The translations under genes were made by a program, and so were the position numbers. The notes under the pieces are model-generated. The model saw only the letters and a program-made list of their open reading frames with translations. It was not told where the DNA came from and made no database searches. A DNA stretch of 64,000 bases from NCBI GenBank assembly GCA_003507655.1, contig DNUZ01000023.1, positions 102,289-166,288 of the forward strand, in the 5' to 3' direction. The stretch is from Lachnospiraceae bacterium. GTDB taxonomy: Bacteria > Bacillota > Clostridia > Lachnospirales > Lachnospiraceae. This document shows, one piece after another, positions 20,556 to 61,160 of the stretch; positions within the stretch are counted from its first letter, which is position 1; each line of letters begins with the position of its first letter.

Positions 20556-20714
20556 GCAGGCTGCACAAATAAATATTTCGGGCTTCCCTGTGCAGACCAT
20601 TCCGATGAACCTCCCACAAAGCAGGAAGCGTGTTCGCCAGTGGGCTCCACGCTTCCGGGAGTTTCATCTCCATAGCACAAAAAGAACCCTTCCATATTCA
20701 TTTGTGCAGCCTGC
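20556..20714 (+). repeat. Structured repeat element, copy 1
   Basis: A 159-bp element whose outermost 15 bp pair perfectly (20556-20570 with 20700-20714). Inside are a CTGTGC/GCACAA stem, the pair GATGAACCTCCC/GGGAGTTTCATC, and an apical hairpin GGAAGCGTG/CACGCTTCC. The core is shared with copies at 39005-39157 and 61002-61160, while the outer arms are unique to this copy. It lies between the T-box terminator and thrS and encodes no plausible protein. Confidence 0.85.
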
Positions 20715-20838
20715 GTGGGGACGCTCAGGAAGAGGGCGTTAACACCTCGGATTCAGCGTGAAATAGATGAGCACGAAGCGCAAGATACCGGATCTTCGCA
20801 TGAAGAGCCGGTCTGGCTTGCTCGAGAATGTAGAATCT

Positions 20839-21059
20839 GTACCAGGGTATGGTGTTCGGGGTGGGATTGTGACGGATGTTAGATTTTCTTGATGTTTTGT
20901 AAGAGACCACAGCAATTTTCGGACAGGATGTCCGAAAAAGGCGAAGTCGAGCCATGGATGGCGAGTCTGAGCCGGTTGCGTCCGTCCCCAACACCCTACC
21001 AAAACATTTAGAAAATCTTATATCCAAAACACGCCACCCCGGACACCATACCCTGATAC
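20839..21059. repeat. Long imperfect palindrome in the thrS leader
   Basis: Arms of about 60 bp (20839-20899 and 21001-21059) match at roughly four of five positions as an inverted repeat. They enclose a 100-bp core with its own perfect hairpin, TTTTCGGACA-GG-TGTCCGAAAA. A smaller hairpin, ACCGG to CCGGT, lies just before it at about 20787-20812. It resembles the neighbouring repeat in architecture but shares no clear core with it. Confidence 0.65.
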
Positions 21060-21139
21060 AGAGCAAGCTACAGAATTACAGAGCCACAGAATCATAGCAC
21101 TATCAAAAAAGAAACAAAAATAGAAGAGGAGAGGATAAA

Positions 21140-23104
21140 ATGAAAATCACATTAAAAGATGGCAGTATCAAAGAATACGCAGAGGCAATGAGTGCTTACG
21201 ACATCGCAAGAGATATCAGTGAAGGACTTGCAAGAGCAGCCTGTGCAGTAGAGATCAATGGAGAAGTCAAAGATTTAAGAACGGTAGTAGACAGTGACTG
21301 CGAAATGAACATTTTAACAGCAAAGGACAGTGAAGGACTTCGTACGGTACGCCATACCTGTTCCCATGTGTTAGCAGAAGCAGTAAAAAGACTGTTCCCA
21401 AATGTAAAGTTAGCAATTGGACCGTCTATTGACGAGGGATTTTATTATGATTTTGAATCCGAGCCGTTTTCGAGAGAAGATTTAGATAACTTAGAAAAAG
21501 AAATGAAAAAAATCATCAAAGAAGGCAATCGTTTGGAAAAATTTACACTTCCAAGAGAAGAAGCCATTGCATTGATGAAAGAAAAAGAGGAACCATATAA
21601 GGTAGAACTGATTGAAGATTTACCGGAAGATGCGGAAATTTCTTTTTATAAACAGGGCGAGGGATTTACCGACCTTTGTGCAGGACCGCATCTGATGAAT
21701 ACCAAGGGAATCAAAGCATACAAACTGATTTCCTCTTCCATGGCATACTGGAGAGGCGATTCCAACAAAGCACAGCTTCAGCGTATCTATGGAACAGCAT
21801 TTGCGACAAAAGATGAACTGAATGCTTATTTAGAGCATTTAGAGGATATCAAAAAACGTGACCACAACAAATTAGGACGCGAGATGGAATTATTTACTAC
21901 TGTCGATGTGATCGGGCAGGGACTTCCACTTATTATGCCAAAAGGTGTCCGTATGATTCAGACATTACAGCGTTGGATTGAAGATTTAGAGGACAATGAG
22001 TGGGGATATATCCGTACAAAGACACCGTTAATGGCAAAATCCGATTTGTATAAAATTTCCGGACACTGGGATCACTACAAAGAGGGAATGTTTGTCTTAG
22101 GTGATGAGAGCAAGGATAAAGAGGTATTTGCGCTCCGTCCGATGACCTGCCCATTCCAGTATTATGTATACAAAAATTCACAGCACTCATACCGTGAGCT
22201 GCCATTGCGTTACAGCGAGACATCCACTCTGTTCCGTAATGAGGATTCCGGCGAGATGCATGGATTGACCAGAGTCCGCCAGTTTACGATTTCAGAAGGA
22301 CATTTAATTGTAAGACCGGATCAGATGGTAGAGGAATTTAAGAATTGTATCGCACTGGCACGTCACTGCTTAAAGACCTTAGGATTAGAAGAAGACGTAA
22401 CCTATCATCTTTCTAAATGGGACCCGGAAAACAGAGAAAAATACATCGGAGAACCGGAAGTCTGGGAAGAGACACAGCAGCATATGCGTGATATGATGCA
22501 TGAGCTTGGCATTGAATTTGTGGAGGATGTTGGAGAAGCTGCATTCTACGGACCAAAGATTGACATTAATGCGAAAAACGTATATGGAAAAGAAGACACC
22601 ATGATTACGATTCAGTGGGATGCACTGTTAGCAGAACAGTTTGATATGTATTATATTGATGCAAACGGTGACAAGGTACGTCCTTACATTATCCACCGTA
22701 CTTCCATGGGATGCTATGAGAGAACCTTAGCATGGCTGATCGAGAAGTATGCCGGAAAATTCCCGACCTGGCTTTGCCCGGAACAGGTACGCGTACTGCC
22801 GATTTCCGATAAATATGAAGCATATGCAAAAAAAGTAGAAGCAGAACTTAAGAAAAACGGTGTCTATGTATCTGTGGATGCACGTTCTGAAAAGATCGGT
22901 TACAAGATCCGTGAAAGCCGTCTTGCAAAAGTACCATACATGTTAGTAGTCGGCGAAAAAGAAGAGGCAGACGGAACAGTTTCCGTCAGAAGCCGTTTTG
23001 CCGGTGATGAAGGTGTCAAACCGATCGCAGAGTTCGTAGAGCAGATCTGCAAAGAAATCCGTACGAAAGAAATCCGTAAGGAAGAAGTGCAGGAACAAAA
23101 ATAG
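21140..23104 (+). CDS. thrS: Threonyl-tRNA synthetase
   Basis: The 654-residue class II synthetase charges tRNA-Thr. It has an N-terminal TGS domain (about 1-60), an editing domain with HTCSHVLAEA (near 77), a catalytic core with the zinc ligand Cys337 in MTCPFQ and motif 3 in GCYERTLAWL, and a C-terminal anticodon-binding domain. An AGGAGAGG site precedes the ATG. Expression should depend on the T-box more than 600 bp upstream, because no closer promoter was recognised. Confidence 0.97.
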   Translation: MKITLKDGSIKEYAEAMSAYDIARDISEGLARAACAVEINGEVKDLRTVVDSDCEMNILTAKDSEGLRTVRHTCSHVLAEAVKRLFPNVKLAIGPSIDEGFYYDFESEPFSREDLDNLEKEMKKIIKEGNRLEKFTLPREEAIALMKEKEEPYKVELIEDLPEDAEISFYKQGEGFTDLCAGPHLMNTKGIKAYKLISSSMAYWRGDSNKAQLQRIYGTAFATKDELNAYLEHLEDIKKRDHNKLGREMELFTTVDVIGQGLPLIMPKGVRMIQTLQRWIEDLEDNEWGYIRTKTPLMAKSDLYKISGHWDHYKEGMFVLGDESKDKEVFALRPMTCPFQYYVYKNSQHSYRELPLRYSETSTLFRNEDSGEMHGLTRVRQFTISEGHLIVRPDQMVEEFKNCIALARHCLKTLGLEEDVTYHLSKWDPENREKYIGEPEVWEETQQHMRDMMHELGIEFVEDVGEAAFYGPKIDINAKNVYGKEDTMITIQWDALLAEQFDMYYIDANGDKVRPYIIHRTSMGCYERTLAWLIEKYAGKFPTWLCPEQVRVLPISDKYEAYAKKVEAELKKNGVYVSVDARSEKIGYKIRESRLAKVPYMLVVGEKEEADGTVSVRSRFAGDEGVKPIAEFVEQICKEIRTKEIRKEEVQEQK

Positions 23105-23130
23105 AAAAAAATTTTTGAAAACTTTTTAAG

Positions 23131-23189
23131 AATAAATCTCCCTCTTCTTACACACCCTAAAGTGGCAGAAAGAAGAAAGGAGATTTATT
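23131..23189 (+). promoter_or_regulatory. Hairpin sequestering the ribosome binding site of the DUF1540 gene
   Basis: AATAAATCTCC at 23131-23141 is the exact complement of GGAGATTTATT at 23179-23189, which contains the AAAGGAG binding site. A further CTTCTT/AAGAAG pair lies inside. The ATG is 3 bp downstream of the stem. There is no T run, so this is not a normal terminator; a translational switch is inferred. Confidence 0.6.
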
Positions 23190-23192
23190 TTT

Positions 23193-23507
23193 ATGACAAA
23201 ATTAGAGTGTTCCGTTAAAAACTGCGTTTACAATGAAGAACCTTACTGCTGTAAGGGGGATATCATGGTAGAAGGAAGAGATGCAAAAAACACAAGCGAG
23301 ACAGCATGTGCAAGTTTTCAGGAGAGAACAAAAGACTGCTGTTCTAACACTGTTGGTCACAAGAGCGAGAATATTGATGTCGCTTGTGAGGCAGTAAAAT
23401 GCGTTTATAACGAAAGCTGTAAATGCAGTGCAAACCGTATCGGAATCGTTGGCGGTAATGCAAAAGACAGTGCAGACACACAGTGTGCCAGCTTTTGTTG
23501 TCAATAA
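23193..23507 (+). CDS. DUF1540 cysteine-rich protein, two repeats
   Basis: The 104-residue protein consists of two copies of the DUF1540 unit (about 1-48 and 62-104). Each begins with a CxxxxCVYNE-type motif and ends with a CASF motif. The many conserved cysteines suggest metal binding. The biochemical role of DUF1540 is not established; such proteins are common in anaerobic Firmicutes. It follows thrS by 88 bp, and its ribosome binding site is buried in a hairpin. Confidence 0.85.
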   Translation: MTKLECSVKNCVYNEEPYCCKGDIMVEGRDAKNTSETACASFQERTKDCCSNTVGHKSENIDVACEAVKCVYNESCKCSANRIGIVGGNAKDSADTQCASFCCQ

Positions 23508-23629
23508 TTAGCGAATAAGGAAGAAACTTCACGAAAAATTCAAAGTAGACACTTGTAAAAAGTCTCTATACGAAGTACAATAACAATGTAATTGCAGTTG
23601 TACAAAAGAATTTTTCGTGGAGGCATTAC

Positions 23630-24226
23630 ATGAGAAAGAAGTCACATATTTCATTAGCTCGCGATATTGTCCGTAATTCAGAGGATGAAGGGCTGAGAAA
23701 GCACAAATGGGCTTTTTATTTAGGAAGTATCCTGCCGGACATCAAACCTTCCTTTTTGTATAAAAAGCATGAAATTGACGGAACTTTTGAACAGGTAAAA
23801 AAAGAAGTAAGAGAATTGTCAGACTCGCACGGAAAGTATAGGGAACATGCGACAAAGTATTACAGGAATCTTGGTCAGATCACCCATTATATAGCGGATT
23901 ATTTTACTTTTCCGCATAACAGAACGTATCCGGGCAATCTAAAGGATCACTGTTCCTATGAAGAAGTACTAAAGCTGAGATTACGAGAGTATTTAAAGAC
24001 AGATAAAAAAGACAGATGGCCTTTTGTACAGTGTCATTTTGGCAGTGCAGAAGCGTTGTGTGACTTTATTAAATTACGACATGAGGAATATTTAAGACGA
24101 AAGATAGATGTCGAGGAAGATATTCGGCATATTGTATCATTAAATTACCAGGTAGTAGAGGGAATCAGGCAGTTAGCAGAGCAGGGAAAGTTGCATCAGT
24201 ACCTGTCAAAGAAGAGGGCTGCATAA
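23630..24226 (+). CDS. Zinc-dependent phospholipase C family protein
   Basis: A 198-residue protein similar to the zinc-dependent phospholipase C/S1-P1 nuclease-like family. It shows HISLA near the N-terminus, GSILPDIKP, and HYIADYFTFPHN with metal-ligand histidines and aspartates. It has no signal peptide, so it probably acts inside the cell, and its substrate is unknown. A GGAGG site overlaps GTGGAGGCATTAC before the ATG. It is 19 bp upstream of lgt and may be cotranscribed with it. Confidence 0.75.
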   Translation: MRKKSHISLARDIVRNSEDEGLRKHKWAFYLGSILPDIKPSFLYKKHEIDGTFEQVKKEVRELSDSHGKYREHATKYYRNLGQITHYIADYFTFPHNRTYPGNLKDHCSYEEVLKLRLREYLKTDKKDRWPFVQCHFGSAEALCDFIKLRHEEYLRRKIDVEEDIRHIVSLNYQVVEGIRQLAEQGKLHQYLSKKRAA

Positions 24227-24245
24227 CTGCAGTAAGGCAAGCAGT

Positions 24246-25112
24246 ATGGATTGGAGTATTCGTTTCCCGCATTTGGGAATCTATTTAGAACATGTGGGGA
24301 AAAATTTTACAGTCTTTGGGATTTCCATAGCATATTACGGCGTGATCATCGCCGTGGGAATGCTGGCAGGAATCCTTCTGGCTACATATGAGGCCAAAAG
24401 AACCGGGCAGAATCCCGATGATTATTTTGACTTGGCGATCATTGCCATTATCTGCTCCGTGATCGGAGCAAGATTGTATTATGTCATATTTTCGTGGGAT
24501 CTGTATAAGGACAACCTGTGGAGTATTTTAAATCTGCGCCAGGGTGGACTGGCGATCTACGGAGGCGTGATTGCTGCAATTATTACAGCAGTTGTCTTTG
24601 CGAAGGTCAAAGGGCTTTCATTTCCGAGATTGGCAGATACGGCAGGTCTGGGTCTGATCTTAGGTCAGATCATCGGAAGATGGGGCAACTTCTTTAACAG
24701 GGAAGCATTTGGCGGTTATACAGACGGACTGTTAGCGATGCAGCTTCCGGTCAGTGCTGTCAGAGACAGTGATATTTCAAAAGAGCTTGCCGAACACATC
24801 GTGGAGATCGGAGGAGTATCTTACATTCAGGTACATCCGACGTTTTTGTACGAATCCCTGTGGAATCTGGTATTGCTGGTGATCCTATTGCTGATCAGAA
24901 AGAGGAAGAAGTTCGAGGGAGAGATTTTTCTGCTGTACTTAGCAGGATATGGGATCGGACGGGCATGGATTGAAGGTCTTAGAACGGACCAGCTCCTGAT
25001 TCCGGGAACTTCCGTTGCAGTTTCGCAGGTATTAGCAGTAGTATTAGCAGTCGTTTCGGTGATGATGCTTATCATACTTAGGAAAAAAGCAGTGAGCAGG
25101 AAACAGCAATAA
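24246..25112 (+). CDS. lgt: Prolipoprotein diacylglyceryl transferase
   Basis: The 288-residue membrane enzyme transfers a diacylglyceryl group from phosphatidylglycerol to the lipobox cysteine of prolipoproteins, such as the two lipoproteins in this window. It has about seven membrane segments and the Lgt signature GRWGNFFNREAFG near residues 144-156. The catalytic-site YxxH-like VHPTFLYES is also present. The ribosome binding site is weak (TAAGG). Confidence 0.95.
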   Translation: MDWSIRFPHLGIYLEHVGKNFTVFGISIAYYGVIIAVGMLAGILLATYEAKRTGQNPDDYFDLAIIAIICSVIGARLYYVIFSWDLYKDNLWSILNLRQGGLAIYGGVIAAIITAVVFAKVKGLSFPRLADTAGLGLILGQIIGRWGNFFNREAFGGYTDGLLAMQLPVSAVRDSDISKELAEHIVEIGGVSYIQVHPTFLYESLWNLVLLVILLLIRKRKKFEGEIFLLYLAGYGIGRAWIEGLRTDQLLIPGTSVAVSQVLAVVLAVVSVMMLIILRKKAVSRKQQ

Positions 25113-25136
25113 CATTTTGACTAAGGAGCGATATGG

Positions 25137-25295
25137 ATGCAGGAAAAAGAAACATTACAGGAACAGATTGAAATAGCAAGAAAAAGACTGGACGAAGCAT
25201 ATGCCTTTGGTAATGATATTGAAGGATGCTACGAACTGAGCAGAGAAGTGGACCGCATGATCGAGCGGTATTTAGACCTCAGTGAGAACAATTAA
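25137..25295 (+). CDS. Spo0E-like sporulation regulatory protein
   Basis: A 52-residue open frame that begins 24 bp after lgt with an AAGGAG site 8 bp before its ATG. It would form two helices. The second, CYELSREVDRMIERYLDL, fits the signature of Spo0E-type aspartyl-phosphate phosphatases (LS..VD..I..Y). These small proteins remove phosphate from Spo0A and delay sporulation; spo0A is also in this window. The start is certain because the ATG 4 bp earlier leads to an early stop. The family call rests on the motif and size. Confidence 0.75.
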   Translation: MQEKETLQEQIEIARKRLDEAYAFGNDIEGCYELSREVDRMIERYLDLSENN

Positions 25296-25349
25296 ATAAT
25301 GTCTGGAAACTAGATACAAGAGAAGAAACATAAAGATGGTAAGAGCAAA

Positions 25350-25386
25350 GGAAAGCATTGTAGAGATACAGTGTTTTCCTTTTTTA
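25350..25386 (+). terminator. Terminator before the dcw cluster
   Basis: A 13-bp stem with two G-U pairs, a GAGA tetraloop and a run of T residues. It insulates mraZ from lgt and the Spo0E-like gene. Confidence 0.9.
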
Positions 25387-25426
25387 TTTTTTACACCCTA
25401 ATCTTTCTTAAAAATACTGGAAACAC

Positions 25427-25499
25427 TTGCTTTTTACCCACTGGTGGAGTAAAATGGATATAAAAGTGGGTGAAAGTGGTAGATAGTGGCACAAAGTGG
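25427..25499 (+). promoter_or_regulatory. mraZ promoter with MraZ operator
   Basis: TTGCTT at 25427-25432 and TAAAAT at 25450-25455 are 17 bp apart. Four GTGG repeats follow at 25466, 25476, 25486 and 25496, exactly 10 bp apart. This is the known MraZ box layout, placed over the transcription start, so MraZ should repress the whole dcw operon. Confidence 0.9.
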
Positions 25500-25564
25500 T
25501 GGATAAGTTGATAACTTTGTGGATAACACGAAAAAAATAGCCACGGTAAGTAGGTGAGTGTCAG

Positions 25565-25996
25565 ATGTTCATGGGAGAATACAATCATACAATCGATGCA
25601 AAAGGCAGAATGATCGTTCCGTCTAAGTTCAGAGAGCAGCTTGGAAACGAGTTTGTTGTAACAAAAGGACTGGATGGATGTCTGTTTGTATATCCAAATG
25701 AAGAATGGCACAATATTGAAGAAAAATTTAGAAATGTCCCACTTACCACAAAAGATGCAAGAAAATTCTCACGTTTCTTCTTCGCCGGAGCAGCCACCTG
25801 TGAGTTAGACAAGCAGGGAAGAATCCTGATACCACCGGTTTTAAGGGAATTTGCTGATTTACAGAAGGATGTCGTATCCGTTGGAGTACTCAACCGGATC
25901 GAGATCTGGAGCAAAGACAACTGGCTGGATTGCAATTCCTATGATGACATGGACGAAATTGCAGAGCATATGGCAGATTTGGGATTGAGTATCTAG
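25565..25996 (+). CDS. mraZ: Transcriptional regulator MraZ
   Basis: The 143-residue protein has two AbrB-like swapped-hairpin repeats, each with the DxKGR-type motif: [13 protein letters not shown] near residue 12 and [14 protein letters not shown] near 85. It forms a ring that binds the GTGG repeats upstream and represses the division and cell-wall cluster. Its binding site is present at 25466-25499. Confidence 0.96.
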
Positions 25997-26032
25997 GATA
26001 AGAAATCAAAAACGACGGGATAGGAGAACGAT

Positions 26033-26971
26033 ATGGAATTTCATCATACATCCGTATTATTAAATGAGACAATTGACAATCTGAACATCAAACCGAATGG
26101 CATCTATGTCGATGGAACCTTAGGTGGAGGCGGACATGCCTTAGAGGTTGCAAAGAGATTAGAGAAAGGTGGCAGACTGATCGGTATCGATCAGGATGAA
26201 GATGCGATTTTAGCAGCAACGGAGAGATTAAAAGACTATCAGGACCGAGTTACGGTTGTACGCAGCAATTACTGCAATATGCGTAAGGAACTGAAAGCTC
26301 TTGGGATTGAAAAGGTAGACGGTATTGTCTTAGATCTTGGTGTATCTTCCTTTCAGTTAGACACACCGGAGCGTGGTTTTACTTATATGGAAGAAAATGC
26401 TCCACTGGATATGCGGATGGATCAAAGGGAAAGCCGTACAGCGAAAGACATTGTCAATACCTACAGTGAAAAAGAACTGTATCGGATCATCCGGGATTTC
26501 GGAGAAGACAAATTTGCAAAAAATATCGCAAAGCACATTGTGGCAGCGAGAGAAAAACAACCCATTGAAACAACCGGAGAGCTGACAGCGATCATCCGTT
26601 CAGCAATTCCGAAAAAAGTACAGATGAGTGGCGGACATCCGGCAAAACGTACCTTTCAGGCGATCAGGATTGAATTGAACCGGGAATTAGAAGTGTTGCA
26701 GGATACACTCGATGATATGATAGAACTTTTAAATGAAGATGGAAGGATCTGCATCATTACTTTCCACTCATTAGAAGATAGAATCGTAAAGACCATATTT
26801 AAAAAGAATGAAAACCCATGCACCTGCCCAAGTGACTTTCCGGTTTGTGTATGTGGCAAGGAATCCAAAGGGAAAGTCATCACAAGAAAACCGATTTTGC
26901 CGGGTGAAGAGGAATTACGGGAAAATTCAAGATCAAAGAGTGCAAAATTGCGTGTGTTCGAGAGAAGGTAA
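26033..26971 (+). CDS. rsmH: 16S rRNA (cytosine(1402)-N4)-methyltransferase
   Basis: The 312-residue enzyme (old name mraW) methylates C1402 of 16S rRNA in the decoding centre. It starts with the typical HHTSVLLNE, has the SAM-binding [10 protein letters not shown] motif near residue 27, and has the conserved [12 protein letters not shown] near 240. An AGGAG site lies 6-7 bp before the ATG. It sits second in the dcw cluster as usual. Confidence 0.97.
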
Positions 26972-26997
26972 AAGACAAAAAAGCGGAGGTGTCTAAA

Positions 26998-27477
26998 ATG
27001 GAGCAGAATCAGTATCGGATGTATGTAGACGGAAATACGGTACGCAAGGCAGAAGCACTGCCGAAAGACGACAGACAGGAAAGAATCAGAAGAGAACGTG
27101 AAGAACAGAGAGCCAGAAACAGAAAAATAGCAAAGAGAAATCAGGCAAGAGAACTGCGTATGAGCCGCAGATATGTGGCATTTTTGGCAGTTGCAGTAAG
27201 TATTACCTGTCTGGTATGTGCAGCATATGTGCATTTACAGGCAGATATTACCACCAGAATGAGTAATATTTCAGCTTTAGAAAAAGAAATTGCAGATTTA
27301 AAGACAGATAATGACACCACATTAAAAAGAGTCAATACCTCCATCAATCTGAATGAGATTAAAGAAAAAGCAATCGCAGAATTGGGGATGGTCTATGCAG
27401 CACCGGATCAGGTTGCTTACTATAGTATTGAGGATTCAGACTACATGACACAGTATGAAGAAATTCCGGGAAAGTAG
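26998..27477 (+). CDS. ftsL: FtsL-like septum protein
   Basis: A 159-residue protein with a highly charged cytoplasmic N-terminus, a single membrane helix near residues 58-78, and an extracellular coiled coil (SALEKEIADLKTDND). This matches FtsL, which pairs with FtsQ/DivIB and DivIC in the divisome. Sequence similarity of FtsL proteins is low, so the call rests on layout and place between rsmH and a PBP gene. ATG at 26998 is favoured over GTG at 26989, which overlaps the GGAGG site. Confidence 0.8.
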   Translation: MEQNQYRMYVDGNTVRKAEALPKDDRQERIRREREEQRARNRKIAKRNQARELRMSRRYVAFLAVAVSITCLVCAAYVHLQADITTRMSNISALEKEIADLKTDNDTTLKRVNTSINLNEIKEKAIAELGMVYAAPDQVAYYSIEDSDYMTQYEEIPGK

Positions 27478-27489
27478 TGTGGTGGAAGA

Positions 27490-36971: not shown

Positions 36972-37062
36972 GTTTCCGATAGAGATTAGGGGCAAAGGGC
37001 GGTTTCTTTAGATCGGCAACTTGCACAAAGCCGGATCTGTTTTGTTCCGTTGTACGAAAATA

Positions 37063-37181
37063 AGAAAATTTAAGTCTGTCTGAGTTAGGCTGTGATGGAG
37101 TGACGTGTACGTCTTAAACGCCCCGTCCATGGCAGCAAAACACTATACATGAACAGCCAGACTAAGATTTACTAATTTTCT
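37063..37181. repeat. Palindromic element between ftsZ and larB
   Basis: The flanks pair imperfectly: AGAAAATT at 37063 with AATTTTCT at 37174, and further inward AGTCTG with CAGACT. The inside can form GATGGA/TCCAT around a GACG-TGTA-CGTC hairpin. The rest of the 448-bp gap holds the ftsZ terminator, a short TGTGC-GAA-GCACA hairpin near 37215, and nothing else recognised. Its core shows only short likeness to other elements. Confidence 0.5.
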
Positions 37182-37359
37182 CCCAAAGTCACAAAAGCAG
37201 TCCCGGTTTTGTGCGAAGCACACTTTTGCTCTCTGAATTGAAGTTCTGAAGATAAACGAAATTGCATGAGAAACAGAGTCGTGTGGTTAGAAAAGTCTGG
37301 AATAGAAAACACAGGATTTTTAAAACAGACAGGTAGCATAATAGATATGGAGCAGTGAC

Positions 37360-39004: not shown

Positions 39005-39157
39005 GTCGGCACAGATCAGATATTCCGGGTTTCCTTGTGCAGACCATTCCAATGAACCTCTGAAAGCGGAAATCGTGTGCGCCAGAGGGCTTCACGATTC
39101 CCTGAGTTTCATTTCCATTGCACAAAAAGAAACCCGGAATATCTGATCTGTGCCGAC
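39005..39157 (+). repeat. Structured repeat element, copy 2
   Basis: A 153-bp element closed by a perfect 28-bp inverted repeat (39005-39032 with 39130-39157). Inside are TTGTGC/GCACAA, AATGAACCTC/GAGTTTCATT, and an apical hairpin whose arms read GGAAATCGTG and CACGATTCC. Compared with copies 1 and 3, paired bases change together (G-C to A-T and G-C to T-A), which supports the fold. Confidence 0.88.
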
Positions 39158-52909: not shown

Positions 52910-52981
52910 CCTATGGAAAAATGACAGAAAAGGGGGGAGAATTGCTTGTTTCTATTGGACTTGAAAAATTAGTTGCTATTT

Positions 52982-53129
52982 TTCGACAAGAGATGTGTCG
53001 AATTGCCTGTATAATACAGTTGATTCAGGAGTATCCGACACGGATATGCAAAAAAGCCGCTAAAATACAGTGGTTGTCGAATTAGAACGTTAGAAAACTA
53101 TTGAATTTAGGGGAACCTAACGATATAAT
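52982..53129 (+). promoter_or_regulatory. spo0A control region with three 0A boxes and promoters
   Basis: 0A boxes (TGTCGAA) occur at 52996-53002 and 53075-53081, with one reversed (TTCGACA) at 52982-52988. TATAAT is found at 53010-53015, and a proximal promoter has TTGAAT at 53101-53106 and TATAAT at 53124-53129 with 17 bp between. A TTAGG-GGAA-CCTAA palindrome lies in that spacer. Direct feedback by phosphorylated Spo0A is likely. Confidence 0.8.
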
Positions 53130-53165
53130 AGCAGCATGTTTGAAAAATTTACCAGGAGGGACAGC

Positions 53166-53966
53166 ATGGAGAAGCTGAACATTGCGATTGCAGATGATAA
53201 CGAAAGAATGGTGCGTCTTTTAGGCGATATTGTACGGAGTGATGAAGAATTACAGGTGATTGGAACAGCGAAAGACGGGGTAGAAGCGTACGAATTGATA
53301 AAAACTGCCGAACCTGACGTTGTACTGTTAGATATTGTTATGCCAAAGATGGACGGCTTAGGAGTTATGGAAAAAGTCAACAAAGATTCTACGATCAAAA
53401 AGCACCCGGCATTTATTATGATCAGTGCGATTGGTCAGGAAAAGATTACAGAGGATGCATTCCGGCTCGGAGCAGATTACTATATTATGAAACCGTTCGA
53501 CAATGATATGGTCATTAGTCGGATCAAGGATGTCAAAAACCGTAACGTAGCACGTCCAAGCGAGGTGCGTAAGGTACAGCCTTATGAGAAACGGGAAGAA
53601 TTAAAAGAACGTAACTTAGAGGCTGATGTGACGGCAATTATCCACGAGATTGGAGTTCCGGCACATATTAAAGGATATCAGTACTTACGGGAAGCAATTA
53701 TCATGTCTGTGAATGACATTGATATGTTAAATTCCATTACGAAGATTCTCTATCCTACGATAGCGAAAAAGTTTCAGACTACGCCAAGTCGTGTAGAGAG
53801 AGCCATCCGTCATGCGATCGAGGTTGCATGGAGCAGAGGAAAAATGGATACGATCGATGCACTGTTTGGGTACACCATTAACAACGGAAAAGGAAAACCG
53901 ACAAATTCAGAGTTTATCGCTCTGATCGCGGACAAAATCAGATTGGAATATCGGAGCAATTCCTGA
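53166..53966 (+). CDS. spo0A: Sporulation master regulator Spo0A
   Basis: The 266-residue response regulator decides entry into sporulation. The receiver domain has the phosphorylation site Asp56 in [10 protein letters not shown], with the acidic pair DD at 10-11. The C-terminal Spo0A DNA-binding domain has [19 protein letters not shown] and the recognition helix region [17 protein letters not shown] at 53166 follows AGGAGGG by 5 bp. Its own promoter region carries 0A boxes. Other regulators in the window, the Spo0E-like protein and SpoIVB, belong to the same process. Confidence 0.97.
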
Positions 53967-53973
53967 GATTAAC

Positions 53974-54028
53974 TTTAAAAATTCCTCCTGGTACGGTATA
54001 ATAAAATTAATTATATTGTACTTGGAGG
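53974..54028 (+). promoter_or_regulatory. glgA promoter and ribosome-site hairpin
   Basis: TTTAAA at 53974-53979 and TATAAT at 53997-54002 are 17 bp apart, so transcripts start near 54009. CCTCC-TG-GTAC at 53984-53994 can pair with GTAC-TT-GGAGG at 54018-54028, which is the glgA ribosome binding site. The CCTCC arm exists only in RNA reading through from spo0A. Confidence 0.55.
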
Positions 54029-54034
54029 TTTTTT

Positions 54035-55483
54035 ATGAAAAAAGTCTTGTTTGTAACATCGGAAGCAGTTCCGTTTATTAAGACCGGAGGGCTTGCGGAT
54101 GTAACCGGTTCTTTACCGAAATATTTTGATAAAAAGAAGTATGATGTACGTATTATGATCCCGAAATATCTGTGCATAGAGGAAAAACTGACAGCAGATT
54201 TGGAAAATCTGGGAAATTTTTCGATATCTCTCGGATGGCGTGAGCAGTATGTCGGAGTATTTCACAAGGTTGTCGAAGGGGTTACTTACTATTTTATAGA
54301 TAATGAATACTATTTTGGCGGAGATCAGCCATATAACCGGATCTATGAAGATGTGGAGAAGTTTGCATTCTTTTCTAAAGCAGCCATTGCCGCAATGAAA
54401 TTTATTGATTTTCAGGCAGATATCATACACTGTCATGACTGGCAGACCGGAATGGTGCCTGTATTTTTAAAATATTTTTATGGAGAGGATCCGTTTTATC
54501 AGAAGATGAAGACCGTCTTTACAATCCACAATCTGAAATTTCAGGGAAGATGGAAGCTCAACGAAGTCAAAGATATTACGGGACTGCCGGCTAAATTCTT
54601 TATGCCGGATCAGTTAGAATCTTACGGCGAAGCAAATTATTTAAAGGGCGGGATTGTCTATTCCGACATGGTAACAACGGTAAGCAGATCCTATGCGCAG
54701 GAAATTACGACACCGGAAGGTGGAGAGGGCTTAGACGGTCTGCTTCGTGCAAAATCAGACCATTTGTATGGAATTGTCAATGGGATTGATTATGATGAGT
54801 ATGATCCGGTCACGGATCAGCGTATCGGGACACATTTTGATAAGATGAATGTGGTAAAAATGAAACCGGCAAATAAGGCAGGCCTTCAGGAAGAGCTGGG
54901 ACTTCCAAAAGAGGAAGATGCATTTTTGATCGGAATTGTATCGAGGATGACAGTGCAAAAGGGTATGGATCTGATTGCCTATGTGATGGATGAACTGTTA
55001 GGGGATAAGAAAATCCAGTTTGCAGTGCTTGGAACAGGAGAAGAACGTTTTGAGAATATGTTCCGCCACTTTGCCTGGAAGTATGAACGGCAGATGGGAG
55101 TCTGTCTTCAGTATTCCGAAGATTTAGCACACCGGATCTACGCTGGAGCGGATGCCTTTTTAATGCCATCCATGTTTGAACCGTGCGGACTCAGCCAGTT
55201 GATGAGTATGCGTTATGGAACCGTTCCAATGGTGCGTGAGACAGGAGGGCTTCGGGATACTGTCTGCCCATATAACGAATACGAGCAGACAGGAAATGGT
55301 TTCTCTTTTGCCAATTACAATGCACATGAGATGTTACATATGATCCGTTATGCAAAAGATACTTATGTCAATCATAGAAACGAGTGGAATGGGATTGTAA
55401 AACGTGCGATGGACTGTGACTATTCCTGGAATGCATCCGCTAAAGATTATGAATCACTCTATGAGGAACTTTTCAAGATGTGA
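54035..55483 (+). CDS. glgA: Glycogen synthase (ADP-glucose)
   Basis: The 482-residue GT5 enzyme extends alpha-1,4-glucan from ADP-glucose. The N-terminal ADP-glucose motif KTGGLADV begins at residue 16, and the C-terminal Rossmann half has the catalytic region FMPSMFEPCGLSQLMSMRYG. A CTTGGAGG site precedes the ATG. Other glycogen genes are not adjacent. The gene ends 3 bp before the convergent DUF5688 gene. Confidence 0.95.
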   Translation: MKKVLFVTSEAVPFIKTGGLADVTGSLPKYFDKKKYDVRIMIPKYLCIEEKLTADLENLGNFSISLGWREQYVGVFHKVVEGVTYYFIDNEYYFGGDQPYNRIYEDVEKFAFFSKAAIAAMKFIDFQADIIHCHDWQTGMVPVFLKYFYGEDPFYQKMKTVFTIHNLKFQGRWKLNEVKDITGLPAKFFMPDQLESYGEANYLKGGIVYSDMVTTVSRSYAQEITTPEGGEGLDGLLRAKSDHLYGIVNGIDYDEYDPVTDQRIGTHFDKMNVVKMKPANKAGLQEELGLPKEEDAFLIGIVSRMTVQKGMDLIAYVMDELLGDKKIQFAVLGTGEERFENMFRHFAWKYERQMGVCLQYSEDLAHRIYAGADAFLMPSMFEPCGLSQLMSMRYGTVPMVRETGGLRDTVCPYNEYEQTGNGFSFANYNAHEMLHMIRYAKDTYVNHRNEWNGIVKRAMDCDYSWNASAKDYESLYEELFKM

Positions 55484-55486
55484 TAA

Positions 55487-56365
55487 TTAGCAAATGGAGT
55501 CTGTCTTTCGGGAATAATAATAGGCATGATCGGAAAGAACTTCTTCCGGTAACAGTTCGGAATGGTTAACTTCCTGAATGATCGGGGCATATTCTTCAAA
55601 TGACTCCCCCTGATCAGCCGGAAGCAGAAGTACTTCATGCAGACTGCTTGGGATAATAATTAAGTCGTGATTTATTTTCTTCGCTATTGAGGATAAAAGA
55701 TTTGGATAGAGTATTACGGCTGCACCAAAGAGTTTTTCGGAATTGGTCAGAACATAGAGTGGGTGGAGCTGGTTTTTGCTAAATTCAGACAAGTCGGAAA
55801 CATTCTGCAAGACGGAAAAAATATCATCGAAATAGTAAGGGAGCAGCTTTGGGGTGTTGATTTTTGCAGACTCAAACAGGGTATCGGTCGAGACATTCCA
55901 GTAAGGCAAATGCCGGTTATAAATGAGGATTGTTGCCTGCTCTCCGGGGGTTAGATGAATCAGATAATAGAAGACGACAGCGAGGTCGAGAAAACGAATA
56001 TGGGGAACTTCTTTTAGAAGTTCTCTGTTTTTTTCGTAGTGAATCAGCTTCATACAGATGCGGTCTTTGGCATTTTCGTAGTCTGTAAAGAAGCGGATGT
56101 CAATGTTCTCGTCGGGATGATGCATGGCATAGGTGTTTTTGATTTCTTCTAAAATGTGAAACATCGGCATGCCGTCCTGAAATTTGGAAAAGTATGGGTT
56201 CAGATAAATCGTAGGAGAAATATTCTGTCCTTTTTTCTGAATGGTCAGTCCATCTAAAATAATTTGATTGTTTTTTGGTATTTTTTGGATAGACAGTGTA
56301 TAGTCGCTGCCATAGTAATTGCTTAATGCAGAAACAATCGTTTCTTTAAAGGTGTCAAATGTCAT
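55487..56365 (-). CDS. DUF5688-like protein of unknown function
   Basis: A 292-residue soluble protein that resembles the DUF5688 family common in Lachnospiraceae. It starts MTFDTFKETIVSAL and contains HPDENIDIRFFTDYENAKDRI and a tail with SSLHEVLLLPADQ. Members have no known function. ATG at 56365 is chosen since TCAGGAGG lies upstream on the minus strand; the longer frame has no binding site. It is convergent with glgA with almost no gap. Confidence 0.75.
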   Translation of the reverse strand: MTFDTFKETIVSALSNYYGSDYTLSIQKIPKNNQIILDGLTIQKKGQNISPTIYLNPYFSKFQDGMPMFHILEEIKNTYAMHHPDENIDIRFFTDYENAKDRICMKLIHYEKNRELLKEVPHIRFLDLAVVFYYLIHLTPGEQATILIYNRHLPYWNVSTDTLFESAKINTPKLLPYYFDDIFSVLQNVSDLSEFSKNQLHPLYVLTNSEKLFGAAVILYPNLLSSIAKKINHDLIIIPSSLHEVLLLPADQGESFEEYAPIIQEVNHSELLPEEVLSDHAYYYSRKTDSIC

Positions 56366-56441
56366 AAAAACCTCCTGAATAAAAAATGTAACAGGCGGGA
56401 TATGAAATAAAATGGGAATATGCACGAAAGTGCAAAGATAA

Positions 56442-56470
56442 AAAATCCACATGAGATTCATGTGGATTTT
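56442..56470 (-). terminator. Terminator of the pot operon
   Basis: AAAATCCACATG and CATGTGGATTTT form a perfect 12-bp stem with a 5-nt loop. On the minus strand it is followed by T residues, 37 bp after the potD stop codon. Confidence 0.85.
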
Positions 56471-56506
56471 AATGTAACACGGAAATTCAAAAAATGCAAG
56501 TAGAAA

Positions 56507-57559
56507 TTATTTGGATTTTAATTCTTTCCAGAGTTTGTTGTAAAGTGCAATGGAATCTTCATCCAGGTAGCGGAAGATCTCACAGTTGTTTAAGGTTTCG
56601 TCATCAGGGAAAATGGTCTTATTTTCCTGGGTTTCTTTGTCTAATTTGTCATAGACCGCTTTATTTGGTGTTGCATAGTATACATATTCAAAGTTCTTCA
56701 TAGCGATGTCCTCGCGGCAGAGGAAGTCTAAGAATTTTTCTGCATTTTCCTGATGTTTACAGGTCTTTGCAATCAGCCAGGAATCAATCCACATATTCGA
56801 GCCTTCCTCCGGGACACTGTAGTCTAAATCTTTGCTCAAAGACTCTGCATAGGCAGCTTCGCCGGAGTATACCAGTGCCATGGATGCATTGCCTGCGACC
56901 ACTTCGTCAGCACTTTCATCTACCAGATAGGAGTAGACCAGCGGTTTCTGCTCAATTAACTGGTCAAGTGCTGTTTCTAACTCTTTTTTATCGGTAGAGT
57001 TTGAGGAATAACCGAGACGTTTGAGTGCCGGTACAAAGGTGTCACGCACACTGTCTTCCATGATAATCTGGTCTTTATATTTTTTATTCCAGAGGATATC
57101 CCAGCTTTTGACGTCATTGGCATCTACTTTATTTTTGTTATAGAGGATTCCGACCGTTCCAAAGAAGTATGGCATGGAATATTTGTTTTCCGGATCGAAA
57201 GCCTTAGAAAATTCAAAATAAGAATCATTTAAATTTTTAGAAAGAGGAATCTTATCAAAGTTAATCTCTTTTGCTTCTCCCTCGTTGATCAGGCGTTCTA
57301 CCATGTAATCAGAGGTGCAGATCACATCGTAGTCGATCGCACCGGATTTGTATTTCGTATACATTTCCTCCGGATTTACATATTCTTCATAGTTGACATG
57401 GATGCCGGTTTCTTCTTCAAAGGCATCTAACACACTCGACTCTATATATTTTCCATAGTTTAATACCGTCAGTGTGTTTCCGTCATCTTTAGAGCCGCAG
57501 GCAGTGAATGCGAACATCGCTCCAAGGCATGCAGCCATCAGCAGTAATTTTTTCTTCAT
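56507..57559 (-). CDS. potD: Spermidine/putrescine-binding lipoprotein PotD
   Basis: A 350-residue extracellular solute-binding protein of the polyamine ABC importer. The signal peptide ends in the lipobox FTAC with Cys21 as the lipid anchor. The mature part has the PotD-type start TLTVLNYGKYIESSVLDAFE. It is the last gene of the regulator-potABCD operon and is followed by a terminator. The polyamine specificity is inferred from family and operon. Confidence 0.93.
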   Translation of the reverse strand: MKKKLLLMAACLGAMFAFTACGSKDDGNTLTVLNYGKYIESSVLDAFEEETGIHVNYEEYVNPEEMYTKYKSGAIDYDVICTSDYMVERLINEGEAKEINFDKIPLSKNLNDSYFEFSKAFDPENKYSMPYFFGTVGILYNKNKVDANDVKSWDILWNKKYKDQIIMEDSVRDTFVPALKRLGYSSNSTDKKELETALDQLIEQKPLVYSYLVDESADEVVAGNASMALVYSGEAAYAESLSKDLDYSVPEEGSNMWIDSWLIAKTCKHQENAEKFLDFLCREDIAMKNFEYVYYATPNKAVYDKLDKETQENKTIFPDDETLNNCEIFRYLDEDSIALYNKLWKELKSK

Positions 57560-57569
57560 AATGTCCTCC

Positions 57570-58352
57570 TTATGTTGTCAGTGCGGTGCTTTTTTTGGAT
57601 GAACGGTAATTCATCAAAAGCAGTAACAGTAGTGCGATCAGGAATAAAATAGTGGAGAGAGCGTACATCTCCGGTTTGATCCCTTTTTTGAGTTCGGTGT
57701 ATATCATGGTTGAGAGTGTATTGACTCCCGGTCCTTTTGTAAAATAGGTAATAGAAAAATCATCTAACGACATGGTCACGGACATCAAAAATCCGCTGAA
57801 TACGCCGCCTTTGATATCAGGCCAGATGATCTTCCAAAATGCATAAGGTCTGGAAGCACCTAAATCCAATGCCGCCTCATAGGTGTTAGGACTTAGGGAA
57901 TTCAGTTTTGGCAGTACGTTTAGAATGACATAGGGGATATTAAAAGTAATATGTGCGATCAAAACGGTGTTCATGCCAAGTCTTGTAAATTTTATCAGTA
58001 ACAGCATTAACGAGATACCGGTTACAATGTCCGCATTTAAAAGCGGGATATTGGTAGCTCCAAGCATCAGTGCTTTCTGTCTTCTTTTCATACTGTGGAT
58101 ACCAATAGCTGCCAGTGTTCCAAGCAGGGTTGCTACAATAGAAGCAACCAGTGTGATGGTAATGGTTGTATAAAAAGCGTTCATAATGGTCCGGCTTTTA
58201 AATACCTCCTGATACCAGCGCAGTGTAAATCCGCCCCACTGGACACGCGATTTTGAGTCATTGAACGAAAGTACGATCAGGACCACGATCGGAAGGTACA
58301 AAAAGAGGAAAATAATGATCAAATACAGGCGTTCGATTCCTTTTTTTACCAT
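57570..58352 (-). CDS. potC: Spermidine/putrescine ABC transporter permease PotC
   Basis: A 260-residue permease with six membrane helices and the cytoplasmic EAA loop (EAALDLGA) that contacts PotA. It pairs with PotB to form the channel. It overlaps potB by 7 bp and is followed by potD after 10 bp. Confidence 0.94.
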   Translation of the reverse strand: MVKKGIERLYLIIIFLFLYLPIVVLIVLSFNDSKSRVQWGGFTLRWYQEVFKSRTIMNAFYTTITITLVASIVATLLGTLAAIGIHSMKRRQKALMLGATNIPLLNADIVTGISLMLLLIKFTRLGMNTVLIAHITFNIPYVILNVLPKLNSLSPNTYEAALDLGASRPYAFWKIIWPDIKGGVFSGFLMSVTMSLDDFSITYFTKGPGVNTLSTMIYTELKKGIKPEMYALSTILFLIALLLLLLMNYRSSKKSTALTT

Positions 58353-59173
58353 ACGGCATTTCCTCCTTCATTTTCTTTATCCTGTCGGTTCATAAATGCC
58401 ATGGAGGCAATGACAAAGATCATCAGTACAATGGAGAGTCCTGAACCAAGATGCCAGTCCATGCCCTGCATAAAGGACTGTTCAATGACATTTCCGATCA
58501 ACAGTACTTTGCCGCCGCCTAAGAGATCCGAAATAACAAACGAGGTCAGTGCAGGTACAAACACCATAATAATCCCGCTGAAAACTCCGGAAAGGGAGAG
58601 CGGCAGAATGATCTTAAAAAAGACCAAGAGGTTTCCGGCACCTAAATCTCTGGCTGCCTCAATCAAATCCTTGCGGATGCGTACTAACGCATTATAGATT
58701 GGCAGGATCATAAATGGAAGGTAGTCATAGACCATACCAAATACGACAGCGGTCGGGGTATTCATCAGGTTGATCCCAGAAAAACCTAACGTTTTTAAAA
58801 GGGAATTGATGATACCGTTATTCGATAAAAGCATCTGCCATGCTAAAATACGAAGCATAAAATTCATCCACATCGGAAGTACAAAGAGAAAGACCACAAA
58901 GCTGTGCTCTTCGATCTTCATATTGTTTAAGATCATTGCCAGTGGATAGGAGAGCAGCAGGCAGATCAGGGTACAGATCACAGCCAGTTTTAATGCTAAA
59001 AACAATGCTTTTAAATGTACCGGCTCTGCGATCGCCGCGATATTTTCCATTGTAAAACTTCCGGCACTGTTTGTCAGTGCATAGTAAAGAACGGCAAAGA
59101 CCGGAAGGATGATAAAGCCGATGATCCAGACCAGGTAAGGACCGGCTAAAAGTTGTTTTCCAAATTTACGCAT
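58346..59173 (-). CDS. potB: Spermidine/putrescine ABC transporter permease PotB
   Basis: A 275-residue permease with six membrane helices and the EAA loop EAARDLGAG near residue 165. It is the partner of PotC. It overlaps potA by 8 bp and potC by 7 bp, indicating coupled translation. Confidence 0.94.
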
Positions 59174-60239
59174 CGACTTCTACTGCCTCCTCATCACTGG
59201 ATTCCGGTTTGTTCATAATCTGAATATTGAACGGAATGACACGGATTCCCACTTTAGAGCCGACCTCATGCATTTTAGTTGTGTGCACCAGCCATTCAAA
59301 TCCGTTTGCAAGGACTTCAATTTCGTAATGAACCCCTTTAAATATGATAGAGATGACGGTTCCGTCGATAATTCCTTCCTCCGGTTCTACCAGTTCCACA
59401 TCTTCCGGACGGATGACAACGTCAACCGGGCAGTTTTGTCCGAAGCCTTCATCAACGCATGGAAATCTGGTATCTAAGATCTCAACCAGATGGTCTTCTA
59501 ACATAACTCCATCAATGATATTGCTTTCTCCGATAAAATCGGCAACAAAGGCGTTGACCGGTTCATTGTAGATATCCTCTGGTGTTCCGATCTGCTGGAT
59601 ATATCCCTGATTCATAACGACAATGGAATCGGACATGGTAAGTGCCTCTTCCTGGTCATGTGTAACATAGAGAAAAGTAATGCCAAGCTCATTTTTTAAA
59701 CGGATCAGCTCGTACTGCATATCCTGACGCAGTTTTAAATCCAGTGCACCGAGAGGTTCATCTAAGAGCAGTACCTTCGGTTCATTTACGATGGCACGGG
59801 CAATCGCGATACGTTGCTGCTGACCGCCGCTTAAGGAATCGACGGAGCGTTTTTCAAAACCGTCTAAATTGACTAATTTTAATGCGTATTTGATCTTATC
59901 GTTGATGTATTCCTTGCTTTTCTTGCTGATCTTTAAACCAAATGCAATATTTTCCGCAATGGTCATATGTGGAAAAAGAGAATATTTCTGGAATACAGTG
60001 TTTAATTTTCTTTCGTTTGGTGCAAGTGAAGTAATGTCCTGACCGTCAAAATAGATTTTTCCAATGTCAGGGGTCTCAAAACCGCCGATCAAACGCAGGG
60101 TGGTGGTTTTACCGCAGCCGGATGGACCAAGCAGGGTCATAAATTCATTTTCTTTAATGGTCAGATTTAAGTCATCTAATACCATCTGAGAGTCGAAAGA
60201 TTTCGTGATGTGTTCTAAAGTAATAAAGTCTTTGCTCAT
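59166..60239 (-). CDS. potA: Spermidine/putrescine ABC transporter ATPase PotA
   Basis: The 357-residue ATPase drives the importer. Walker A is GPSGCGKTT near residue 38, the ABC signature LSGGQQQR near 134, and Walker [12 protein letters not shown] follows. The C-terminal regulatory TOBE domain covers about 240-345. An AGGAGG site lies upstream. It starts 9 bp after the regulator gene. Confidence 0.96.
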
Positions 60240-60248
60240 GGTATCCTC

Positions 60249-60788
60249 CTAAAAATTCGGTGGCGTGGAGACCCAGATAAATACAGCCTCTTTGACACCG
60301 TATGCTTCGATGTGGTGACGTTTCAGTCCTTTTAAGTAAAAAGACTCCCCGGATTTTACAAGATAACTTTTCGTTCCACGGATGATCCGGATCGCTCCTT
60401 TTAAAACATATCCGAATTCTTCTGCCTCACTGGGTTTCAGCTCCATGGAACGGCCCCCGGGCGCAAGCGTTACGCGTAGAGGTTCCATACCGTTTTTCTG
60501 TGCGTTTGGCACGATCCATTCAATTTTTGAATGTTCATTTTCATCTATTTTTGTAAAATAATCTTCCTTTTTAAATACGATCTGTTCCGGTTCATCATCT
60601 GCAAAAAATTCTGCAGGTGTGGTTCCAAGACACTGGATAATGTCAAGAAGCGTTCCAACAGAAGGAGAAGTCAGATTTCGTTCTAATTGAGAGATAAATC
60701 CCTTAGACAGCTCAGAACGATCGGCAAGCTCCTGCTGGGTCAGTCCATAGTGAACCCGAAGCTCTTTCATGCGGTGCCCGATGTCCAT
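60249..60788 (-). CDS. XRE-family regulator with cupin domain
   Basis: A 179-residue regulator with an N-terminal helix-turn-helix (LTQQELADRSELSKGFISQL, about 15-34) and a C-terminal cupin domain (about 105-175) that would sense a small ligand. The PuuR-type layout and its place as first gene of the pot operon suggest it controls polyamine uptake; the ligand is inferred. A perfect 8-bp palindrome at 60831-60852 in its leader is a candidate binding site. Confidence 0.9.
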   Translation of the reverse strand: MDIGHRMKELRVHYGLTQQELADRSELSKGFISQLERNLTSPSVGTLLDIIQCLGTTPAEFFADDEPEQIVFKKEDYFTKIDENEHSKIEWIVPNAQKNGMEPLRVTLAPGGRSMELKPSEAEEFGYVLKGAIRIIRGTKSYLVKSGESFYLKGLKRHHIEAYGVKEAVFIWVSTPPNF

Positions 60789-60830
60789 AATAAACTCCTT
60801 TTTCTATTATTACTGTGATGTATATGTCAA

Positions 60831-60852
60831 GATCATGGGTGTATCCATGATC
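60831..60852. promoter_or_regulatory. Palindrome in the pot operon leader
   Basis: GATCATGG and CCATGATC are perfect complements 6 bp apart. It lies about 43 bp upstream of the regulator start and downstream of its promoter, as expected for an autoregulatory operator or a leader hairpin. Confidence 0.55.
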
Positions 60853-60908
60853 AAAAGTTGCACTATATGTAAATTGTATGTTTAATAATAATAAACAAAC
60901 CGAGAATT

Positions 60909-60936
60909 ATTATACCGCGTTTGTGGGAAAAGTCAA
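60909..60936 (-). promoter_or_regulatory. Promoter of the pot operon
   Basis: On the minus strand TTGACT (60936-60931) and a perfect TATAAT (60914-60909) are 16 bp apart. The leader to the regulator ATG is about 115 nt. Confidence 0.75.
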
Positions 60937-61001
60937 TATTTTCAGATAAATAAAATGAATTTTCCCGAAGGCAGGGGGCGTGTTAGAAAAAAGCATGTGC
61001 T

Positions 61002-61160
61002 CAGCGGGTTCCCGACAATTATTGCAAGTTTCCTTGTGCTAAACATTCCGATGAACCTCCCCAAAAGCAGGAAGCGTGTTCGCCAGAGGGCTCCACGCTT
61101 CCGGGAGTTTCATCTCCATAGCCCAAAAAGAAACTTTTCATAATTGTCGGGAACCCGCTG
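61002..61160 (+). repeat. Structured repeat element, copy 3
   Basis: A 159-bp element whose outer arms (61002-61031 and 61131-61160) pair over 21 bp, then a 3-nt mismatch, then 6 bp more. The core with ATTCCGATGAACCTCCC, the apical hairpin GGAAGCGTG/CACGCTTCC and GGGAGTTTCATCTCCATA is nearly identical to copy 1. An additional TTAGAAAA/TTTTCTAA pair may extend the stem outward to about 60983-61178. Confidence 0.88.

What the first reader, a model, noticed from the sequence alone, without database searches (positions are those of the whole stretch)
20556..61160. Three-copy structured element with a conserved core and copy-specific, self-complementary outer arms
Seen in sequence: 20556-20714, 39005-39157 and 61002-61160 share a core (ATTCCGATGAACCTC, then an apical hairpin with loop CGCCAGAGGGC, then GAGTTTCATCTCCAT and CACAAAAAGAA). 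The outer stems, up to a perfect 28 bp in copy 2, differ completely between copies yet pair within each copy. Inside the core, copy 2 changes both partners of at least two base pairs. All three point the same way, lie in intergenic gaps and have no open frame. I do not recognise the family. Two ideas: a structured noncoding RNA whose outer stem is kept by pairing alone, or a foldback mobile element whose insertion copies flanking DNA in inverted form.
Basis: partly seen in the sequence, partly recalled or inferred. Interest (0 to 1): 0.8.

Follow-up and report, generated by a model that had tools for sequence, protein, structure and literature searches.

The report
Hairpin mini-transposons with self-matching arms
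The three repeats belong to a family of small, gene-less DNA hairpins scattered through the genomes of gut bacteria (Lachnospiraceae), some of which are clearly mobile; the two arms of each copy tend to change in step so that they still match each other, in a way that points to folded DNA rather than folded RNA.

Summary
The three copies are real: a conserved ~110-nt core inside long hairpins (fold z -6.5, -10.0, -10.5), without an Rfam match. "Differ completely" is overstated: the left arms of copies 1 and 2 are related (0 of 2000 shuffles reach their score); copy 3 is not. Covariance models found the core in 27 of 397 genomes drawn from one Lachnospiraceae family and, in a phylum-wide draw of 398, only in the centre genome itself. 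Fuller scoring gave 4-49 copies in each of 14 genomes and 51 in another. In two genomes the units look like transposons: a shared 15-bp terminal inverted repeat, with 8-12-bp direct repeats outside it in 21 of 28 and 8 of 11 loci (controls 0.1 and 0.15 loci). Across 107 copies all 34 core pairs show two-sided changes, yet G-T pairs (39) barely exceed A-C mismatches (31) among 3579 cells; tRNAs gave 45 and 0. Best reading: MITE-like DNA elements with palindromic arms drifting in concert round a selected, asymmetric core. The window copies show no terminal repeats, so their mobility is inferred; no transposase partner was found.

The parts
20556..20714 (+). copy 1: hairpin element, between a T-box leader and a TwoAYGGAY RNA upstream of thrS
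20581..20690 (+). conserved core of copy 1
   Evidence: R1 and R2 matches
39005..39157 (+). copy 2: hairpin element with an arm helix of about 28-29 bp, between a nickel-insertion (PF01969) gene and an Asp23 gene
39028..39135 (+). conserved core of copy 2
   Evidence: R1 and R2 matches
61002..61160 (+). copy 3: hairpin element between an HTH/cupin gene (-) and a tRNA (+)
61027..61136 (+). conserved core of copy 3
   Evidence: R1 and R2 matches

Best explanation
The copies belong to a family of non-autonomous, MITE-like palindromic DNA elements of Lachnospiraceae. Shown: a dispersed, multi-copy, mostly intergenic family; in two genomes the whole unit (terminal repeat - linker - arm - core - arm - linker - terminal repeat) sits between 8-12-bp direct repeats in most loci examined, so it moves as a unit, presumably by a transposase acting in trans. 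Shown: core and arms keep Watson-Crick pairing through many two-sided changes with no clear preference for G-T over A-C, and unpaired core bases are on average better conserved than paired ones. Inferred: the palindrome folds as single-stranded DNA or a cruciform; a mutation in one arm is copied into the other by template switching (palindrome correction), so arms drift fast but in concert and become copy-specific; the asymmetric core, including a nearly invariant C-T mismatch that correction should erase, is kept because a protein (transposase, accessory factor or host protein) recognises it folded. The window copies are members whose terminal repeats are no longer recognisable.
For: Homology: R1 found 51 copies in one genome, R2 4-49 in each of 14, best E 3.6e-27. 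Covariation: 34 of 34 pairs; 986 two-sided cells against 272 in shuffles and 104-183 when slid. Wobble: core GT 39, AC 31 of 3579 cells; arms GT 111, AC 99 beside 4453 Watson-Crick; 25 tRNAs GT 45, AC 0 of 547. Unpaired columns 1.1 bits, paired 0.8; C 100% and T 98% at a 1x1 mismatch. Ends with direct repeats: 21 of 28 G002 loci, 8 of 11 G470 loci, control means 0.1 and 0.15 loci. Own arm against swapped arm 102 and 1 of 104. Concerted change at an orthologous locus: L114/L271, 5 two-sided WC-to-WC and 7 one-sided of 87 arm pairs. Flanking ORF strands balanced for codirectional neighbours, 31 and 33 of 107, with 28 convergent and 10 divergent.
Against: No terminal repeat or direct repeat at the window copies. 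Only 18 of 107 aligned copies match one of the two end types on at least one side (few copies from G002 and G470 were in that sample). No transposase with such ends was found; one Pfam family in 5 genomes was tried. The tRNA finder itself demands standard pairs, so its zero A-C is partly built in. Template-switch correction was not separated from selection for pairing. In the three other orthologous pairs two-sided changes do not outnumber one-sided: 1 and 1, 1 and 2, 1 and 11. Core conservation at orthologous sites is mixed: clearly above the flank in two pairs (101/102, 109/109), slightly above in one (104/106 against 241/250) and below in one (101/108 against 239/250). The ORF caller is crude: it gave copy 1 of the window (-,-) neighbours although thrS is on +.
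Confidence: 0.6

Rival explanations
1. A structured noncoding RNA (trans-acting or cis) whose core is functional as RNA and whose outer stem is kept by pairing only; some copies were carried along by MITEs.
For: Very strong covariation; conserved unpaired bases; core 109/109 identical at one orthologous site whose left flank is 250/305 identical.
Against: G-T 39 against A-C 31 of 3579; no orientation preference relative to neighbouring ORFs (crude); no Rfam match; core-less copies occur.
Confidence: 0.17
2. Foldback element whose insertion copies flanking DNA in inverted form, so that arms record each target.
For: In G026 and G420 nine copies have arms of about 68-90 bp at 95% pairing or more, and in 26 of 36 within-genome pairs the left 80-nt arms show no detectable similarity at 2 of 500 shuffles; no empty site was available for these.
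Against: In 10 of the 36 pairs arms are similar, and blastn aligns arms plus core of several G026 and G420 copies. Arms lie inside the direct repeats and are shared between copies in G002 and G470; window copies 1 and 2 share arm ancestry; orthologous copies keep related arms. Odds lowered from 0.08 to 0.06.
Confidence: 0.06
3. The core is itself a mobile unit that inserts at the centre of pre-existing palindromes or MITEs of different kinds.
For: The same core sits between different kinds of ends; core-less 62-64-bp palindromes recur in G470; in G002 locus L081 the inner unit is flanked by a 9-bp repeat.
Against: A palindromic 8-mer in an arm is automatically a direct repeat, so slippage deletion explains these; other core-less forms have irregular lengths and junctions. 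At one site G470 has the full element and G875 a core-less one at the same place, while the more distant G021 has none; I read this as loss in G875.
Confidence: 0.1

Closest known systems
Bacterial MITEs (Correia/NEMIS, ERIC, RUP, RPE, YPAL; reviews PMC2229807 and PMC10969869, passages seen)
   Same: About 100-300 bp, no gene, multi-copy, mostly intergenic, long stem-loop, terminal repeats and flanking direct repeats (in G002 and G470).
   Different: Arms copy-specific and co-varying; a conserved asymmetric core kept in copies whose ends are not recognisable; at least two end types round one core.
REP/REPIN elements (PMC2817692, PMC3733652, PMC3116915: search listings only)
   Same: Dispersed palindromic DNA; several head-to-head pairs here.
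   Different: REPs are 20-40 bp (PMC3733652 listing); these are 150-300 bp. No search for a REP-associated transposase was made.
Integron attC sites (PMC6393395, search listing only)
   Same: Analogy: a folded single-stranded DNA hairpin recognised by a protein.
   Different: No integrase, cassette array or attC boxes were looked for.
Quasi-palindrome correction by template switching (PMC3820800, PMC8604942: search listings only)
   Same: Makes the arms of inverted repeats identical; would explain concerted arm change.
   Different: The two listings concern yeast; not shown directly here.

Membership tests
bacterial MITE | short non-coding multi-copy element, mostly intergenic | tested here: met
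   27 of 107 copies overlap a crude ORF of 70 aa or more, five of these ORFs 291-360 aa, the rest 71-161 aa
bacterial MITE | terminal inverted repeats in relatives | tested here: met
   AGGYAATTGCGAAAC with up to 4 mismatches on both sides in 28 of 28 G002 loci picked by the core and in 5 of 5 G470 loci picked by the core; the other 6 of the 11 G470 loci had been picked for these ends
bacterial MITE | target site duplication in relatives | tested here: met
   21 of 28 G002 loci and 8 of 11 G470 loci (L302 and L342 are one copy; 4 of the 5 picked by the core), control means 0.1 and 0.15 loci
bacterial MITE | terminal repeats and target duplication at the window copies | tested here: not met
   best matches to the two end types have 5-8 mismatches; the one hit at copy 1 is the palindrome itself
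bacterial MITE | parent transposase with the same ends | tested here: inconclusive
   PF01609 in 5 genomes, 9 loci, none with close matches to either end type on both sides; other transposase families not tried
bacterial MITE | filled versus empty site | tested here: inconclusive
   one site: full (G470), core-less (G875), no element in distant G021, where matches are 65-66% identical
structured ncRNA (Rfam) | match to a known family | tested here: not met
structured ncRNA (Rfam) | covariation of paired columns | tested here: met
structured ncRNA (Rfam) | G-U pairs accepted in preference to A-C | tested here: not met
   39 and 31 of 3579 cells
structured ncRNA (Rfam) | transcript | not testable with these tools
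   no RNA-seq at hand
REP/REPIN | 20-40-bp hairpin with a tag and a REP-associated tyrosine transposase | not tested
   size differs; tag and transposase not searched for
integron attC | integrase boxes and cassette context | not tested
   analogy only

The most novel reading that the evidence does not exclude
The core is the folded single-strand recognition site of an undescribed Lachnospiraceae DNA-processing system (recombinase, transposase accessory or host factor). It has been taken up by MITEs with at least two different kinds of ends, and produces DNA-level covariation strong enough to imitate a riboswitch-grade RNA family.
Probability: 0.25. Interest if true: 0.75.

Novelty: new variant of a known kind. 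Interest (0 to 1): 0.55.

Why it matters
It gives a natural set of over a hundred copies in which complementarity, more than sequence, is kept, with strong covariation but almost no wobble pairs. If right, that is a warning for RNA discovery by covariation alone, and offers G-T versus A-C counting as a simple discriminator. It also makes the question of how long palindromes survive and self-correct in bacterial genomes testable.

Tried and rejected
Exact-pattern scans for the window core: 0 matches in genome contigs and in viral contigs. blastn in plasmid and phage records: one weak match each, 25% of the query, E 4 and 1. A looser pattern in viral contigs gave 31 stretches, none with the neighbouring core motifs within 70 nt. 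PF01609 transposase with the right ends: not found. Clean empty sites inside G002 and G084: the core-less forms looked like deletions. No core was found in the genome with the closest thrS (G001, 1.9 Mb). Paper searches for a description of this family, of which I saw the listings, showed none; they cover only open PMC text.

Not done: RNA-seq; a test that separates selection from palindrome correction; searches for REP-associated or other single-strand transposases; chromosome-strand bias.
Full report
Observation. Copies 1-3 lie at 20556-20714, 39005-39157 and 61002-61160, all on +. Pairwise core identities are 91/111 (1-2), 98/110 (1-3) and 88/110 (2-3) aligned columns. Each folds with z of -6.5, -10.0 and -10.5 against 200 dinucleotide shuffles. 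Two core pairs change on both sides in copy 2 and a third differs on both sides between copies 2 and 3; 94.2% of 104 pair cells are standard. The claim that arms differ completely is too strong: the 40-nt left arms of copies 1 and 2 align better than all of 2000 shuffles, while their right arms (249 of 2000) and all comparisons with copy 3 do not stand out.

Surroundings. Copy 1 sits between a T-box leader (20254-20481; 75.5 bits, below the Rfam gathering score of 93, E 2.4e-16) and a TwoAYGGAY RNA (20867-21032) in front of thrS. Copy 2 follows a nickel-insertion (PF01969) gene and precedes an Asp23 gene; copy 3 lies between a divergent HTH/cupin gene and a tRNA. No Rfam family covers the elements, nor ten loci with relatives.

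Relatives. The best 80 thrS matches are mostly titled Lachnospiraceae, 92% identical at best. A covariance model of the three cores (R1) hit 2 of 12 genomes (limit E 0.1; one of the two weak, E 0.013), 3 of 61 and 7 of 50 (18 of the 80 thrS loci were not searched as genomes through their own handle). A second model from 23 sequences (R2) hit 27 of 397 genomes drawn from the family of G084, that genome included. In a phylum-wide draw of 398 it hit only G084 itself. In these two draws only nine candidates per genome were scored, with strict filters, so weak or extra copies were missed. With fuller scoring (150 candidates), copies per genome in 14 genomes chosen for having hits were 28, 7, 49, 4, 8, 4, 10, 9, 8, 14, 30, 15, 9 and 4; G002 had 51. 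No whole genome is held for the window itself.

Structure. R2 aligned 107 copies from 98 sources. Left out were most G002 and G084 copies, the G026 loci L113 and L114, several G399 loci and a few others. All 34 pairs show changes on both sides; 986 cells changed on both sides against 272 in shuffles and 104-183 when partners are slid; 92.2% of 3511 cells are standard pairs. The alignment is fitted to the structure, which favours it. In 62 rows under 85% identical, unpaired columns carry more information (1.1 bits) than paired ones (0.8), and a 1x1 C-T mismatch in the middle stem is almost invariant (C 100%, T 98%).

DNA or RNA. In a helix kept for RNA, G-U is tolerated and A-C is not (established knowledge). 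Here G-T is 39 and A-C 31 of 3579 cells (25 and 17 of 2074 in the 62 non-redundant rows), with 249 and 148 other mismatches. In the arms, G-T is 111 and A-C 99 beside 4453 Watson-Crick, 243 other mismatches and 157 gaps. Twenty-five tRNAs from the window and the 80 thrS loci gave G-T 45 and A-C 0 of 547, with the caveat that the finder itself demands standard pairs. Neighbouring ORFs show no orientation preference: codirectional 31 and 33, convergent 28, divergent 10, the other 5 with one neighbour missing. The ORF calls are crude: copy 1 of the window was given (-,-) neighbours although thrS is on +, and 27 of 107 copies overlap an ORF of at least 70 aa, five of them 291-360 aa, which I did not check one by one. 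With that caution, the pattern fits a DNA element selected against in promoter regions.

Arms. 105 of 107 copies have a paired arm, median aligned length 42, longest 102; 20 have at least 25 bp at 95% or more. An arm matches its own partner in 102 of 104 cases and another copy's arm in 1 of 104. Yet arms are not all unrelated: within G026 and G420, left 80-nt arms are similar in 7 of 21 and 3 of 15 copy pairs (at most 2 of 500 shuffles), which suggests drift from common ancestors. At orthologous loci (judged from alignable flanks): L114/L271, 87 arm pairs, 75 unchanged, 5 changed Watson-Crick to Watson-Crick on both sides, 7 one-sided; L118/L233, 1 two-sided and 1 one-sided of 39; L245/L253, 1 and 2 of 33; L113/L270, 1 and 11 of 38. 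In L113/L270 much of one outer arm is missing from L270. Cores at these loci are 104/106, 101/102, 109/109 and 101/108 identical. The left flank is 250/305 at L245/L253 and 284/305 at L118/L233, 241/250 at L114/L271 and 239/250 at L113/L270. So the core is clearly better kept than its left flank in two pairs, slightly in one, and worse in one. In L114/L271 and L113/L270 it is better kept than the arms (84/95 and 83/94; 72/93 and 37/45).

Mobility. In G002, 28 of 28 loci picked by the core (of 51 copies) carry the end AGGYAATTGCGAAAC (up to 4 mismatches) on both sides. In G470 the 11 loci examined do so too, but six of them had been picked for these ends; the five picked by the core all have them. 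Direct repeats of 8-12 bp flank 21 of 28 and 8 of 11 (4 of the 5 picked by the core; L302 and L342 are the same copy), against means of 0.1 and 0.15 loci when right flanks are swapped. A second end type, GGGTGTCAAAAGCC, occurs with the same core in G084, G073 and G413 and on one side in G113. Of the 107 aligned copies 18 match an end type on at least one side, and 0 of 107 with shuffled flanks. A blind search for any 14-bp end plus direct repeat gave 25 of 113, controls 4, 0 and 1; several of the 25 are the palindrome itself. Core-less palindromes with the same ends occur in G002, G084 and G470. At one site (between what I read as rplI and dnaB, names recalled) G470 has the full 213-bp unit, G875 (flanks 91% identical) a core-less remnant at the same place with recognisable but mismatched direct repeats, and the more distant G021 no element. 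I read this as insertion followed by palindrome deletion. No transposase with these ends was found among 9 PF01609 loci of 5 genomes searched.

Interpretation. The evidence supports a MITE-like family (known kind) with two unusual traits: concerted, largely copy-specific arms, and an asymmetric core that persists where the ends are no longer recognisable. Template-switch correction of quasi-palindromes is a described process (PMC3820800 and PMC8604942, seen as search listings) that would give concerted arms without selection. It should, however, erase the core's mismatch and internal loops, so the core is probably held by selection, most simply because a protein reads it folded. That last step is inference. 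For the window copies mobility is inferred from homology, since no ends were found there. Paper searches (listings) did not show a description of this family; they cover open PMC text only.

Noticed in passing
window 20254-21140: A T-box leader (below gathering score) and a TwoAYGGAY RNA both precede thrS, with copy 1 between them.
   Followed up: partly
window 37049-37187 (-): A second TwoAYGGAY RNA (55.9 bits).
   Followed up: no
L174, L182, L187, L188, L192, L195 (G002); L082 (G007): A longer core form with an extra hairpin of about 48 nt; by eye the hairpin differs between subfamilies but still pairs.
   Followed up: partly
L252, L253, L254, L255, L256, L310, L324: Seven close pairs of copies about 110-440 bp apart, each head-to-head; noticed by eye in lists that were partly cut.
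   Followed up: partly
L126 and L129 (G113): Core sequences identical in the alignment while outer arms differ clearly: core homogenised or replaced separately.
   Followed up: partly
L116, L130, L131, L133 (G084): Contigs end inside or just beyond the element, so such palindromes may break short-read assemblies and be undercounted.
   Followed up: no
L332-L337, L349 (G470): Seven core-less palindromes of 62-64 bp with the same ends; at least L334 has its own direct repeat, by eye.
   Followed up: partly
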